Shown here one piece after another: positions 506-9,500 of a stretch of DNA of 64,000 nt. Position 1 is the stretch's first letter. Every line of letters starts with the position of its first letter. The notes beneath the pieces are model-generated. The model was not told the origin of the DNA and did not search any database. It saw nothing but the letters and a program-made list of their open reading frames with translations. The DNA is from Rugalucina vietnamica (lineage: Eukaryota > Mollusca > Bivalvia > Lucinida > Lucinidae): the NCBI GenBank assembly GCA_964017185.1, contig OZ024873.1:44812760-44876759 (forward strand). The letters run 5' to 3'. Position numbers and translations under genes: made by a program.

Positions 506-3500
506 GTGAGTATTATGCAGAGTATACATAAATATCGCAAGTGATTTGTGTAGCGAAATTGATTCATTATTGCAGTATCAGTAATGGTGAAAAATGTATG
601 GGCCTGCCGGTGTTCATTTTCTACATTATAATTCCTATATCGACATCTCCATGGCGAGCTGCAGTAACACTTCTATCTATCTATCTATCTATCTATCTAT
701 CTATCTATCTATCTATCTATCTATCTATCTATCTATCTATCTATCTATCTATCTATCTATCTATCTATCTATCTATCTATCTATCTATCTATCTATCTAT
801 CTATCTGTCTGTCTGTCTGTCTGTCTGTCTGTCTGTCTGTCTGTCTATCTATCTATCTATCTATCTATCTATCTATCTATCTATCTATCTATCTATCGAT
901 CGATCGATCGATCGATCGATCGATCGAAAGTTTTTTTTTTCAAAATGCGTTGAAACATTTTGTCCTGAAAATAGTTACCCTGACAATCTTGTGTTTTTTC
1001 TCCAGAGTTCACTTGCACATAAAACAAGAGAACCACTTGCACAAGCAGTGTTCTATTGGAATTCCCCAGCTACGCCGATTGGTCACATTTATTTTGTGTA
1101 AGTACATTGTGAGTAAAGGCTTAATCTTTTCTGATCATATTAGTATCAACATTATTGCTCTCTGAGTAATCGCATTCTAAAACAGGGTACAGTAATCACA
1201 TCGCTTTGTTTTCCATTTAATTTACAATATGTAATTTTCAATCACAAGTATAGAAAATGCTGTAACGCTCGCAACATTGTAGGCATGCCCATTTCCATTT
1301 TACACATAAACTTGCCATTCATATGAGCATCAGAAATCACTTTTATAGAATGTAGTCACCTTTACTTTATAGAATTATTGTCCCTGCTTTGTGACGTCAT
1401 AATATTTTGAATATTAGCACGCCATTTAAAATCACTGCACAGGCTACGTCTTTCAATATTTCGGACTTTCAAATTTGATTGGATGGTGAAAATATCAAAG
1501 GACCTCTGACGGTGGTAATGGGAGTTATAATGTATAGCTGCCTCAGATTTTGAGAAAGATAAATTTTGGTCAAACGCTTTTTTATACATGCTTGCTAGTA
1601 TTCCATAGTTCATTTTATTGGATTGAGGTTTTTGTTTCAAAAGATGTACTGCTTTATTTTTGGGTTAAAATGGGCATATTTTGTATTAAACATATAGAAA
1701 AATAGAAATGTATTTATTTAACATTGTTCCCCGCCCCCCCCCCGAGTCCCAAGAAATCCTTTTGCATGTGAATGCATTGTCATATCTTACATAAAACATG
1801 TGAATGGCGTTCTGGGACTCGGGGGGAACACTACCCTACAGCCCAAAATGTTATCTCAGTACTAGAGCCCAAGTATGTGAAATTGTTTTAAACTTAAAAA
1901 TTAAAAGAAAACAAAACAGAAGTTAAAATGTAAGCCATGTATAAAGTACAAAAATGGATATATACATTTGTTTCCAAAATTGACCCAAATCTGCATGATT
2001 TATAACCTATTTTTATGTTCCATTCCTCAGAAAATGAGGGTACTGTACATTCTGTGGAACAAACTTTTGAAATCATTGTATACTAATATTGTCCACTTGT
2101 TTACACGGCCAGTAACCTCTTGCACCACAAACAGTAACATTGGTGGATTGTTTTACTTTTTTCAGTAAAAAATGTTTTAACTTCCAAATCAACAACTTTT
2201 CAGACGTCGGTATGATGCCACCACTGTCTATGGCCACTATTAGCCAGTACTAGGGGAACTTAAAATGTCTTTGTCATTGGTACAATACAGCGACATGAAG
2301 TTTCAAATTACCAACTTTTAGGATGTTTACACAGTTTGCCATTCATTCTCATAAAACTATTTGCATATTATACCACGTTAGGCATCAAAATATGTATCTT
2401 TCGGTTCTTTAATGCAACGCCTCTAAATAGAGGCCCTGTGTTTGATCCAATTGTTGGGAGCCGTACTGTGCCCGAGACACATTAACTCCCCAGAGTACTG
2501 GGTACAAGAAGTAATACGTGACTAAATCCCAAAATGACTGAAAAATTGTTACTATTAAAGGATGTTCGGCCATAATCTAACTGAACCAAAAATAAAGTTT
2601 ATGATTAGAATCACTACGACACATCCATTTAACGTGACGCATTTGAGACATGTCAAGTTCTGTTTGCGGGTGTGCAAGAAAGTTTTTGTGTGGGTTCTCG
2701 TGTTTTCGCCCACCTACTGATTGGTCCATCTCATACGAGCTGAAATAATCTTAAAAGGGACATTAAACTGAATCAGAAAAATAAAGGCTGAAGGCTATGG
2801 AACGCCAAAGCTGTCTGATGGTAAGGAATAAAAACATTTGATGCATCATCGTCATTATATCCTGCTCATATTTGATTATATGTTGTATAGTGTGCATTAT
2901 ATGATGAGAAAAGTCCATTATATGTTGGACCAGGTTCTTTATATTATGAAAATTTTCATTATATGATGAGTAAACATCTTTATATTATGGTAGACTTACA
3001 TTATATGATGGGTAAACATCTTTATATTATGGTAGACTTACATTATATGCTGATACAACCTCATTATATGATGTGACAACTACATTATATTATGGGCTAT
3101 TGTCTTTATATGCATCAAGATCATTATATGGTTCGATAACTTCATTATATGCGCAAACTTCATTATATGCGCAAACTTCATAATATGATGTGACAACTAC
3201 ATTATATGATGTGGACGATTTTGCGAGAAGAAGATTTACATTGGCACCGTTTAGAGAGTTATTGTATACATGCCGGGACTACCGGACATACTGCTGATTC
3301 TATCTATCTATCTATCTATCTATCTATCTATCTATCTATCTATCTATCTATCTATCTATCTATCTATCTATCTATCTATCTATCTATCTACATGTATCTA
3401 TCTATCTATCGATCGATCGATCGATCATCACCATCATCATCATCATCATCGTCATTATTATATATCATCATCAATATCGATCATCATCATCATCATGATC

Positions 3501-6500: not shown

Positions 6501-9500
6501 GGACTTTTCTCATCATATAATGCACACTATACAACATATAATCAAATGTGAGCAGGATATAATGACGATGATGCATCAAATGTTTTTATTCCTTACCATC
6601 AGACAGCTTTGGCGTTCCATAGAAGGCCGTGTTGTTACAGGTTTATATGGCGGCTGAGACACAATCAGGGTTGCCTTTACTACCTTGGTCATGTTATGCA
6701 TCTGTAATTCAGTGTGATATTATCCAATACCTATTGTTTTTATTTTATTATAACACTGGGATAATAAGCTTTCTGGCGATATATAATGATACCATATTGT
6801 GTACAATATTTTGCGTCAGTGAGACATTATATGCTAAAATAAACACTGTTTTTAACATGTTATGATGTTGCACTTTTATTTTTGGTGTTTTGTCAACATG
6901 TTTGCTTTAATGTTTATGAATGAAATATGTTGCCTATGGCTCTAGAACTAAGGAGACATATGTCCCCTGTAATATACTTTTTACGGCTTTGAATTTGGAC
7001 TAAAATTAATAAAAATATGGAGTATGAAGTGAAACAGTACTTTTCTTATGTTTTTCAATTTTTCATGGTGTCTTAAGTTGGCAGGTAAAACAATTACACC
7101 CACGATTTTTTTGGTATCTAGTCTTTCATTGTTAAGACAATAGAAAGTTTAGAATCAATGGAAGTTGAATTTATCCTCACGGTGAAGAGTGCTTGTTTTT
7201 TAAAAATCATCATTTTTATGTAGAGTCCGTAGCCCCTATTTTCATAATGGATGTTCAAAGCCAGATTCCTATTAACAAGGATGAAATGGTTTTATTATTT
7301 TTCAGACTGAGGACTAGTAAAACATGGCTGAAGGTTTTGTCAAGAAATTGTATAGGACCACTGATGTGGTCAAATATATTTTTGCATGGCCCGTAGAGTC
7401 CGTAGCCCCATGTTATGAGACACCCTAGAAATAAAAAGTGTGTTGCAGTCAAGGTTTCCTTCAATTTTTCATATGCAACCACACATGTAACATTGTATTA
7501 AATTAACTGCAGCATGGAACAATGACTTACCTAAGCTGCATATGATCTTATTTAAGCAGCCCAAAACACAGGTTTGAAGCTCCTTTTCTGAACTATTCCC
7601 ATTACCCACTATGGTGAAATTTGAAAAACGCGAGAGCCAAAAGAATTATTTCTGGAATATAAACCTCATAGGTCATAGATTATTATAAACCAAGAAAAAT
7701 GAAAATACAAAGAGGTTACTTTTTTGCCTCAAGTGCAACACAAAAGGCAACCCTGATTGTGTCTCAGCCGATGGGTAAATAATATTCATGTAAGGTTGCT
7801 CAGTGTGACAATGGGTCGTGTCTGGAGAAATTGTTTTAGGTTAAGATCGAACTTCAATCAAGCTGTGCAACACATAGAGGATGGATTGAAGTTATGTCAA
7901 TTAATGACAGGATTCTGAGTAGCTGGCTGGTCATCGCAGACCTGGGTATATGGTTTTGCATATAAAAATAGCAGGTTTTCTCATGAGGTAACAGTGTCTT
8001 CTTTAATCTTTGGTAGTACTGACACAATAATATTATACAGGTAACTGCTAAAGGTTTGTACCCAAACTGTTGACGTTGTTATACATGTATTTCAATTTTA
8101 TTTCAATGGCATAATGCATGTTTATCGCACTTAACACAGTGTTGCATGCCCAAAACATGATACAGTAGTGGAATTAAAGGACTACAAGCAAGGAAAACAC
8201 ATATGAAATTTTGAACCCCACCCCCGCTAAAATCGTCTTTTTTAAACTATATGGAGGAAATAGTCAAAACTTTTAATAGTTATAGGCTCAGAATACATTT
8301 GGCTATTGCCCTAATCATGAAATACCACCACCAGGACCTTTTAGACATTGTTCTGGTCTTTTGAAAACGGGGCATCAGACCCCCAAGACTGTCACTGATT
8401 CTTTATGCTAATCTTAATTTTATCTTAAATGGTATAAAAAAATATTCGCCGTAAATTGCTAAACAGGTAATTTAACATTTACGTCAGGTTTCAGGCGGCA
8501 TAGCAGGCGCACAGTTTCTAGGACAACTGTTCGTCTGTATCGTAGAATCCCAGTCTTCTGATTGAAAACGCTTCTTAAATATATCATATGAATTTTGAAT
8601 TTGAATTTATCAAGTAAATAGACTTTGGGAAGCTGAAGTGGCGGAATAAGCACATGATTACATTGTGATATGGACGCCTCTTTCAAAGGAATTTTGTGCT
8701 ATTTTTCAAAATGTTACAACTTATAAATCAAGATTTTAGAGGATAAACAATCCAAAACTTGTATCGATGGAATTAACAAAAATCTGACACAAGGCAGCAT
8801 CAGTCACAATGAGGCTCTGAAACTTCTATATCGACGTTCTTTCATTTTCAGTACATAACAAACGGGCTTAGTGCTACAGTTCTCATAAAAAATGCAACTT
8901 CTGTTTTAGGAAAATAACTTTTTGCCGGCAATGAAGACTCCGCAAGTATAAAATCGTTCTTCTAACCGTTTTATTTTAAAACATATTTATTTCAACAAAA
9001 TTGCATATACATAACAAAGTTTCTATACAATACAACAGTATTGGAACGGAAGCTCTAAGCTTATGGAGTTCCTCTCCTCAATCTTATAGTGGAAGTTACA
9101 CGTAATACTGGCGAATATAAATTGTACATAGCTGACAAAAAGTTGAAGAATAGCAAATTATAGATGCAATTTATGTACAAATATTATCCAGGTTCGTTAT
9201 GGGATACTGCTGTGTACTTTTTTTTTTTGCTGTGTACTAACCGTTTTAATTTAAGCATGATACAGTCTGTTGGAACTGGCTGAAGTACGTGCATACAAGG
9301 TCATGAAGATGTCCCTCTTTAGAGACTCAGTTTCCAATGATTAATTGTACCCTCCTAAAATCAGTAGAGCACAACCGTTAAATCGAAATACAATATCTAA
9401 AACGAGATATGCCTAACCATATATTTCGAACAAAATATACCCTATTATAATATATCTAAATTGAAATATAACATGTCAATCTAAATATCATTATATATTT

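What the first reader, a model, noticed from the sequence alone, without database searches (positions are those of the whole stretch)
2796..6621. Foldback element whose arms carry a satellite array and a duplicated 5' gene end
The sequence shows a 3.8-kb element with 6-bp direct repeats, 1.85-kb inverted arms and 103-bp tandem arrays placed symmetrically. Each arm also carries one ATG in a YY1/Kozak-type context followed by a GTAAGA splice donor. This would let the element drop a start exon and donor into any intron it enters, here the Reeler intron. Satellite growth inside an element arm is also a plausible seed for genomic satellites.
Basis: partly seen in the sequence, partly recalled or inferred. 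Interest (0 to 1): 0.75.

Follow-up and report, generated by a model that had tools for sequence, protein, structure and literature searches.

The report
Foldback transposon with tandem-repeat arms
This is a real, fairly young, non-coding mobile DNA element with long inverted arms that is repeated many times in its host genome; its start-codon-like motif and tandem repeats look like passengers, and nothing found here shows that they come from a captured gene or seed a satellite.

Summary
2796-6621 is a 3,826-bp element, TATGGAACGCC...GGCGTTCCATA, flanked by GAAGGC. Its arms are 1,747/1,745 bp at 92% identity, the outer 596 nt at 99%, with facing 103-bp arrays and a mirrored ATG...GTAAGA. It is not an assembly artefact: the host genome (held, unnamed) has 785 family termini, 165 copies of the ATG block and 1,955 monomer anchors, with reversed-pattern controls 0. 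Exact 6-bp duplications flank 11 of 14 two-ended loci; three paralogous empty sites carry one GAAGGC. Six-bp TSDs with TA...TA ends match the published description of IS3EU/GingerRoot transposons, but no transposase partner was found. Most likely it is a non-autonomous foldback DNA transposon resembling Drosophila Tetris. The interpretation mostly lacks support: all 63 of 165 block copies examined lie in element sequence, the ATG-donor stretch is not clearly more conserved than its surroundings, no long satellite array was seen in the listed 100 of 1,955 anchors, and no Reeler domain was detected in the window. Splicing from the donor is untested, because no transcripts are available here.

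The parts
2790..2795 (.). left target-site duplication GAAGGC
   Evidence: single copy in three paralogous empty sites
2796..6621 (.). whole foldback element, TA...TA termini
2796..3298 (+). left outer arm: terminal inverted repeat followed by degenerate 18/21-bp CATTATATGATG-type repeats (about 2875-3213)
   Evidence: elements of 381 and 458 bp made of little else are flanked by TSDs
3299..3426 (+). TCTA microsatellite of left arm
3424..3500 (+). ATC trinucleotide-like run of left arm
3505..3699 (+). left copy of the non-repetitive arm block with CAAGATGGCGGC
   Evidence: 165 genomic copies of its 24-mer core with up to 2 mismatches
3569..3571 (+). ATG in AAGATGGCGG context (YY1/Kozak-like; motif name recalled)
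3607..3612 (+). GTAAGA donor-like hexamer, 38 nt from the A of the ATG; the unspliced frame stops at TAA inside it
3700..4351 (+). left 103-bp array, outer monomer type, 6.3 copies
4317..4649 (+). left 103-bp array, inner monomer type, 3.3 copies
4650..4877 (.). centre of the element, outside both arrays
4878..5709 (-). right 103-bp array, 8.2 copies, one shortened to 89 bp
5710..5911 (-). right copy of the arm block
5845..5847 (-). mirrored ATG
5804..5809 (-). mirrored GTAAGA
6013..6118 (-). GATA microsatellite of right arm
6119..6621 (-). right outer arm with 18/21-bp repeats and terminal inverted repeat
6622..6627 (.). right target-site duplication GAAGGC

Best explanation
A non-autonomous, palindromic (foldback) cut-and-paste DNA transposon, most likely moved by an IS3EU/GingerRoot-type DDE transposase supplied from elsewhere. 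Shown: defined TATGG...CCATA ends, 6-bp duplications at independent sites, uninterrupted paralogous target sites with one GAAGGC, and a multi-copy family of low divergence. Suggested, not proved: the outer arm of about 350 bp is enough for spread, because 381-bp and 458-bp members made of little else have duplications; they could instead have lost their interior after insertion. Inferred: the transposase recognises the terminal repeat and perhaps the 18/21-bp repeats; the microsatellite, ATG block and 103-bp arrays are passengers multiplied when a palindromic ancestor spread; array length changes by unequal exchange. Likelihoods: mobile foldback DNA transposon about 0.97; IS3EU/GingerRoot as its mover about 0.7; ATG block and satellite as passengers about 0.8.
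For: Exact 6-bp TSDs at 11 of 14 loci where both ends were held (10 of 13 independent insertions), one mismatch at 2, none at 1. Empty sites: the joined flanks match 38 other places at 89-96% across the junction (40 of 3,492 candidates scored; the other 2 rows are the window's own flanks), and 3 of 3 fetched show one GAAGGC and no insert. Family counts with up to 2 mismatches: 785 termini, 165 blocks, 1,955 monomer anchors, reversed-pattern controls 0. Low divergence: mean pairwise 2.8% over 41 outer arms and 2.9% over 49 blocks, a sample biased to best-scoring copies. Kojima 2023 (PMC10045372, passages): complete IS3EU families always have TA..TA termini, TSDs usually 6 bp; GingerRoot 6 bp, mostly TA..TA. 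Short members: C2:13646413-13646793 (TATATG/TATATG) and C3:19509559-19510016 (GAATAT/GAGTAT).
Against: No transposase-coding partner was found. Mid-stretches (3.1-4.5 kb) of four 6.5-9.6 kb TIR pairs show no integrase-like frame; six of their longer frames gave no transposase or integrase family in Pfam at E <= 0.01, and 1 kb of a 4.7-kb pair was only read by eye. Integrase-type searches (139 and 68 matches) gave no hit over the IS481 model's cut-off; on C1, C2 and C3 up to 64 Mb the nearest of 29 and 14 matches lies 23.6 kb and 35.6 kb from a listed exact terminus. IS3EU/GingerRoot rests on TSD length and terminal dinucleotides alone. One two-ended locus (C7:51586659) has no TSD.
Confidence: 0.85

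Rival explanations
1. The arm block is a captured 5' end of a host gene (promoter, start exon, splice donor), and the element donates a working first exon to genes it enters.
For: AAGATGGCGGC plus a 38-nt frame open to GTAAGA; 44 of 49 copies keep both with the frame open.
Against: No copy outside element context among 63 of 165 examined. Totals of block and block-satellite junction are nearly equal, 165 and 159, but compared as totals only: of 37 exact blocks on C1-C4, 23 have an exact junction 100-170 bp away (mismatched junctions were not listed). Constraint not clearly above surroundings: 0.0143 against 0.0165, 46 of 171 windows as low. Retention is expected at about 2-3% divergence. YY1-like CCATCTTG also occurs beside the same satellite in a sister foldback (L104, twice) and in an unrelated repeat (L039, once).
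Confidence: 0.08
2. The arm block is the promoter and first exon of the family's own lost or unseen transposase gene, kept in both arms after a palindromic deletion derivative formed.
For: Seen only within the element in the copies examined; promoter-like ATG and donor in the right order.
Against: No coding partner found. There are 785 termini but only 165 blocks, so many members lack it at this stringency. CCATCTTG in L104 faces the other way relative to the satellite.
Confidence: 0.15
3. Satellite seed: monomers escape the arms and grow into genomic satellite arrays.
For: Arrays vary from 0 to 11 monomers per arm in 11 complete copies. Tetris in Drosophila virilis is a published precedent (PMC4079207, abstract and passages).
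Against: In the first 100 of 1,955 anchors (exact matches only), 13 of 19 clusters are within 8 kb of an exact terminus, and the largest cluster has 13 anchors, on both strands, over 12 kb. No long one-way array was seen in that part.
Confidence: 0.07
4. Assembly artefact or chance palindrome.
For: Long palindromes are error-prone in assembly (general knowledge). Two C6 loci with the same TSD and near-identical flanks could be assembly redundancy.
Against: Independent copies with their own TSDs, empty sites, reversed-pattern controls 0.
Confidence: 0.01

Closest known systems
Tetris, foldback transposon of Drosophila virilis (PMC4079207; abstract and passages seen)
   Same: Long TIRs (up to 1,735 bp there) with an outer flanking domain and a variable number of internal tandem repeats; middle without apparent coding capacity; no transposase-coding copy found.
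   Different: TSD 8-10 bp (placed in Mutator by its authors) against 6 bp here; about 220-bp repeats against 103 bp; Tetris repeats form long arrays, not seen here in the listed part; no ATG-donor block is mentioned in the passages seen.
IS3EU/GingerRoot DNA transposons (PMC10045372, passages)
   Same: TA..TA termini and (usually) 6-bp TSDs.
   Different: No transposase found here; long foldback arms with satellite. A search for 'foldback' with 'IS3EU' found one paper, the oyster satellitome; its single 'foldback' passage is a citation of Tetris.
Oyster satellites annotated as DNA/IS3EU (CgiSat35, CgiSat47; PMC8268682, table passage)
   Same: Tandem repeats linked to IS3EU-type elements in a bivalve.
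   Different: 690- and 129-bp monomers; no sequence comparison was made.
Tandem-repeat-containing MITEs of the clam Donax trunculus (title seen only in a reference list; paper not held)
   Same: Short mobile elements with internal tandem repeats in a bivalve (from the title).
   Different: Not compared; nothing but the title was seen.

Membership tests
Foldback (long-TIR) DNA transposon | Very long inverted arms making up most of the element | tested here: met
   1,747 and 1,745 bp of 3,826 bp
Foldback (long-TIR) DNA transposon | Tandem repeats inside the arms | tested here: met
   103-bp and 18/21-bp arrays
Foldback (long-TIR) DNA transposon | Dispersed copies with target-site duplication | tested here: met
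   785 termini; exact TSD at 11 of 14 loci; empty sites
IS3EU/GingerRoot | 6-bp TSD | tested here: met
   exact at 11 of 14 loci, 5 of 6 bases at 2, none at 1
IS3EU/GingerRoot | TA..TA termini | tested here: met
   TATGG...CCATA; 10 of 11 complete copies listed have TATGGAAC and GTTCCATA, one has TATCGAAC at one end
IS3EU/GingerRoot | DDE transposase in an autonomous member with the same termini | tested here: inconclusive
   none found; searches capped, and 47 of 68 frames are 1,000 aa or longer, the size of retroelement polyproteins
Gene-capturing (Pack-type) transposon | Host source gene elsewhere in the genome | tested here: inconclusive
   none among 63 of 165 block copies examined; 102 copies were only counted and a diverged source could be missed. 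The interior of L039 is itself a dispersed repeat (40 of 868 candidates scored, all 97-100%)
Satellite-seeding transposon (as Tetris) | Long monomer arrays outside the element | tested here: inconclusive
   none in the first 100 of 1,955 anchors
Start-exon donor | Chimeric transcripts from the donor | not testable with these tools
   no RNA data

The most novel reading that the evidence does not exclude
A foldback transposon of the IS3EU/GingerRoot kind has dispersed about 165 copies of a compact start cassette (YY1-like initiator, ATG, 12 codons, splice donor), usually in both orientations within one element (8 of 11 complete copies), so that whichever way it lands in an intron one copy points downstream. 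Some insertions would now serve as alternative first exons of host genes.
Probability: 0.06. Interest if true: 0.75.

Novelty: new member of a known kind. Interest (0 to 1): 0.3.

Why it matters
It is a clear foldback family with IS3EU-like ends, a combination for which my searches of the held library (listings and passages) showed no described example; Repbase and Dfam could not be searched. It offers short derivatives that may define the minimal mobile part, and arrays of known position for studying how tandem repeats change inside transposon arms. If the ATG-donor cassette were shown to splice, it would be a two-way first-exon donor.

Tried and rejected
Captured-gene idea for variable interiors: the 844-bp interior of the 1,259-bp element L039 is a dispersed repeat. 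The 5.2-kb element holds a 683-aa frame with a reverse transcriptase domain (RVT_1, E 4.7e-33). The 6.2-kb element holds an endonuclease-like frame below Pfam's cut-off. The 6.5-kb TIR pair on C1 holds the same repeat that flanks the window element (88% over 981 columns). These four look like nested insertions, not captured genes. The interiors of L040, L044, L057, L063 and of L073, L075 and L076 were read or screened for frames only and remain unidentified.

Arm-to-arm homogenisation: arms of one element are closer than arms of different elements in the outer part (0.0153, 5 pairs, against 0.0227) but not in the block (0.0350, 8 pairs, against 0.0324); the two C6 copies differ by 6-7% between their own blocks. 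So there is no clear gene conversion. A left-with-left and right-with-right pattern is weak (block 0.0236 and 0.0283 against 0.0324); left and right were assigned by hand.

RNA structure of the block: z 0.16, nothing special.

Transposase hunt: PF13683 and NF033577 (0 matches over its cut-off) gave many frames of retroelement length. Of four PF13683 matches aligned to profile positions 10-67, the two fetched look Polinton-like by eye and lack this terminal repeat.

Host name: 1.09 Gb in 47 contigs. The published soft-shell clam assembly is 1.22 Gb in 17 scaffolds (PMC10663159, passages), so it is not the same assembly; I leave the host unnamed.
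Full report
What is there. The element at 2796-6621 begins TATGGAACGCC and ends GGCGTTCCATA, and GAAGGC flanks both sides; a 7-bp or longer duplication does not fit. Aligned globally, the arms are 1,747 and 1,745 bp, with 1,594 matches in 1,761 columns (30 with gaps), 92.1% over ungapped columns. The outermost 596 nt are 99% complementary. From the outside in, each arm has a terminal repeat, degenerate 18/21-bp CATTATATGATG-like repeats, a TCTA microsatellite, an ATC-rich run, a block of about 200 bp without repeats, and 103-bp tandem repeats.

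It is a family. The host genome is held (1.09 Gb, 47 contigs; window = C5:44812760-44876759) but unnamed. The left half of the element gives 107 matching stretches with 40 of 1,523 candidates scored; the long ones are 84-100% identical. With up to 2 mismatches, the 22-mer terminus occurs 785 times (385 and 400 by strand), the 24-mer around the ATG 165 times, the block-satellite junction 159 times, and a 28-mer monomer anchor 1,955 times; the reversed patterns occur 0 times. Each of these listings shows 100 places only. Within the best-scoring copies, mean pairwise divergence is 2.8% (41 outer arms) and 2.9% (49 blocks). This sample leans to young copies.

It moves with a 6-bp duplication. Of 14 loci where I hold both ends, 11 have exact 6-bp duplications: GAAGGC (window), GTAGTT, ATAAAG twice, GTTTTC, GTTTAC, CAAGTC, AAAGTA, CTAATG, GACATT and TATATG. 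Two have one mismatch (CATGTG/TATGTG, GAATAT/GAGTAT), and one has none (GTGTAC/CCTTAC). Loci with only one end in hand were not counted. The two ATAAAG loci on C6 have flanks 99.6-99.8% identical over the aligned parts, so they are one insertion copied (or assembly redundancy), leaving 10 of 13 independent insertions exact. The window insertion lies about 20 bp inside the end of another dispersed repeat. A query made of the two flanks with one GAAGGC matched 38 other places across the junction at 89-96% (40 of 3,492 candidates scored; the other two rows are the window's own flanks), and the three fetched (L105-L107) read straight through with a single GAAGGC.

What the mover may be. Kojima 2023 states that complete IS3EU families always have TA..TA termini with TSDs usually of 6 bp, and that GingerRoot has 6-bp TSDs with mostly TA..TA (PMC10045372, passages). 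This element fits both. I could not find a coding partner. Mid-stretches of four long TIR pairs show no integrase-like frame; six of their longer frames were scanned with Pfam at E <= 0.01 and gave no transposase or integrase (one weak match below cut-off to an unrelated model). One kb of a fifth pair was read by eye. The PF13683 search (150 of 1,874 candidates scored, 139 matches) and the NF033577 search (68 of 2,990 scored, 68 matches, none over the cut-off) returned many frames of retroelement length: 47 of the 68 frames are 1,000 aa or longer. On C1, C2 and C3 up to 64 Mb, where the exact termini are listed, the nearest of 29 matches is 23.6 kb from a terminus and the nearest of 14 is 35.6 kb away. 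Four PF13683 matches align to profile positions 10-67 with frames of 348-384 aa; the two fetched look Polinton-like by eye and lack this terminus. Assignment to IS3EU/GingerRoot is therefore inference from TSD and termini.

The minimal mobile part. The 381-bp element on C2 and the 458-bp element on C3 consist of the terminal repeat and 18/21-bp repeats (316 and 355 bp match the left arm) and are flanked by duplications, one exact and one with a mismatch. There are 785 termini but only 165 ATG blocks. This suggests that block and satellite are not needed for movement. It does not prove it, because an element can also lose its interior after insertion. Four long or odd members owe their interiors to other repeats: an 844-bp dispersed repeat, a 683-aa frame with a reverse transcriptase domain, an endonuclease-like frame below Pfam's cut-off, and the same repeat that flanks the window element.

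The start-exon idea. In each arm an ATG in AAGATGGCGG context opens 38 nt to GTAAGA, whose TAA stops the unspliced frame. Of 49 block copies, 45 keep the ATG string searched for, 48 keep GTAAGA, and 44 keep both with an open frame. In 11 complete elements, 8 have the block on both strands, 2 on one, 1 on none. Divergence is 0.0143 in the ATG-to-donor stretch and 0.0165 in the rest of the block, and 46 of 171 windows of the same length are as low, so there is no clear sign of selection on it. Of 165 block copies I examined 63. All 49 in the first loci have a satellite monomer on the inner side, and 47 also have arm repeats on the outer side. All 14 others, picked as unpaired from the 100 listed, have element sequence around them, although two of these (L087, L088) run into other sequence, after the first monomer and about 20 nt after the donor. 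Totals of block and junction are nearly equal (165 and 159), but only 23 of 37 exact blocks on C1-C4 have an exact junction at the right distance, since junctions with mismatches are not listed. A source gene is thus not found but not excluded. YY1-like CCATCTTG with TGACGTCA also occurs next to the same satellite in a foldback with a different outer arm (L104) and inside an unrelated repeat (L039). Whether the donor is ever used needs RNA data.

The satellite idea. Arrays hold 0 to 11 monomers per arm in 11 complete copies. In the first 100 of 1,955 anchors listed (exact matches only), 13 of 19 clusters lie within 8 kb of an exact terminus. Two of the other six are family copies, and the largest cluster has 13 anchors on both strands. 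No long one-way array was seen in that part. The precedent for satellite seeding, Tetris (PMC4079207, abstract and passages), has such arrays.

Verdict. The element belongs to a real foldback DNA transposon family of a known kind. I found no description of it: searches for foldback with IS3EU, and foldback with molluscs and long TIRs, returned one paper each, the oyster satellitome and Tetris, and a wider one (foldback, bivalve, tandem repeats, TIRs) returned five, of which I saw passages of those two and only listings of the other three. Repeat databases were not available. The more exciting readings are not excluded but have no positive support here.

Noticed in passing
L104 (C1:20909300-20910400): A sister foldback carries the same 103-bp monomers (inner type) but a different outer arm with two CCATCTTG and two TGACGTCA motifs.
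   Followed up: partly
window about 1498-2795 and 6622-6650: The element is nested about 20 bp inside the end of another dispersed repeat; 88% similar sequence to 1498-2461 also sits inside the 6.5-kb TIR pair at C1:37193722.
   Followed up: partly
C6:34480307 and C6:36021760: Two elements 1.5 Mb apart share nearly identical flanks and the same ATAAAG duplication: one insertion copied by a duplication, or assembly redundancy.
   Followed up: partly
C7:51586659-51590283: Two-ended copy without a matching duplication although its outer arms are 99.8% alike; possibly a recombinant of two insertions.
   Followed up: no
L101 and L102 (C11, C3): Near-identical Polinton-like stretches with a 384-aa integrase/chromodomain-like frame (read by eye).
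   Followed up: no
window 34847-35155 and 36811-37092, minus strand: Exons of an SMP-30/gluconolactonase-like (SGL, PF08450) gene.
   Followed up: no
window 55125-55394, plus strand: Frame that looks like part of an EF-hand calcium sensor by eye; Pfam gave no match at E <= 0.01.
   Followed up: no
L103 (C2:48166700-48167700): A TIR pair of this family has in its interior a long ATCGATCATCATCATG-type repeat run, resembling an expanded form of the arm's ATC run.
   Followed up: no
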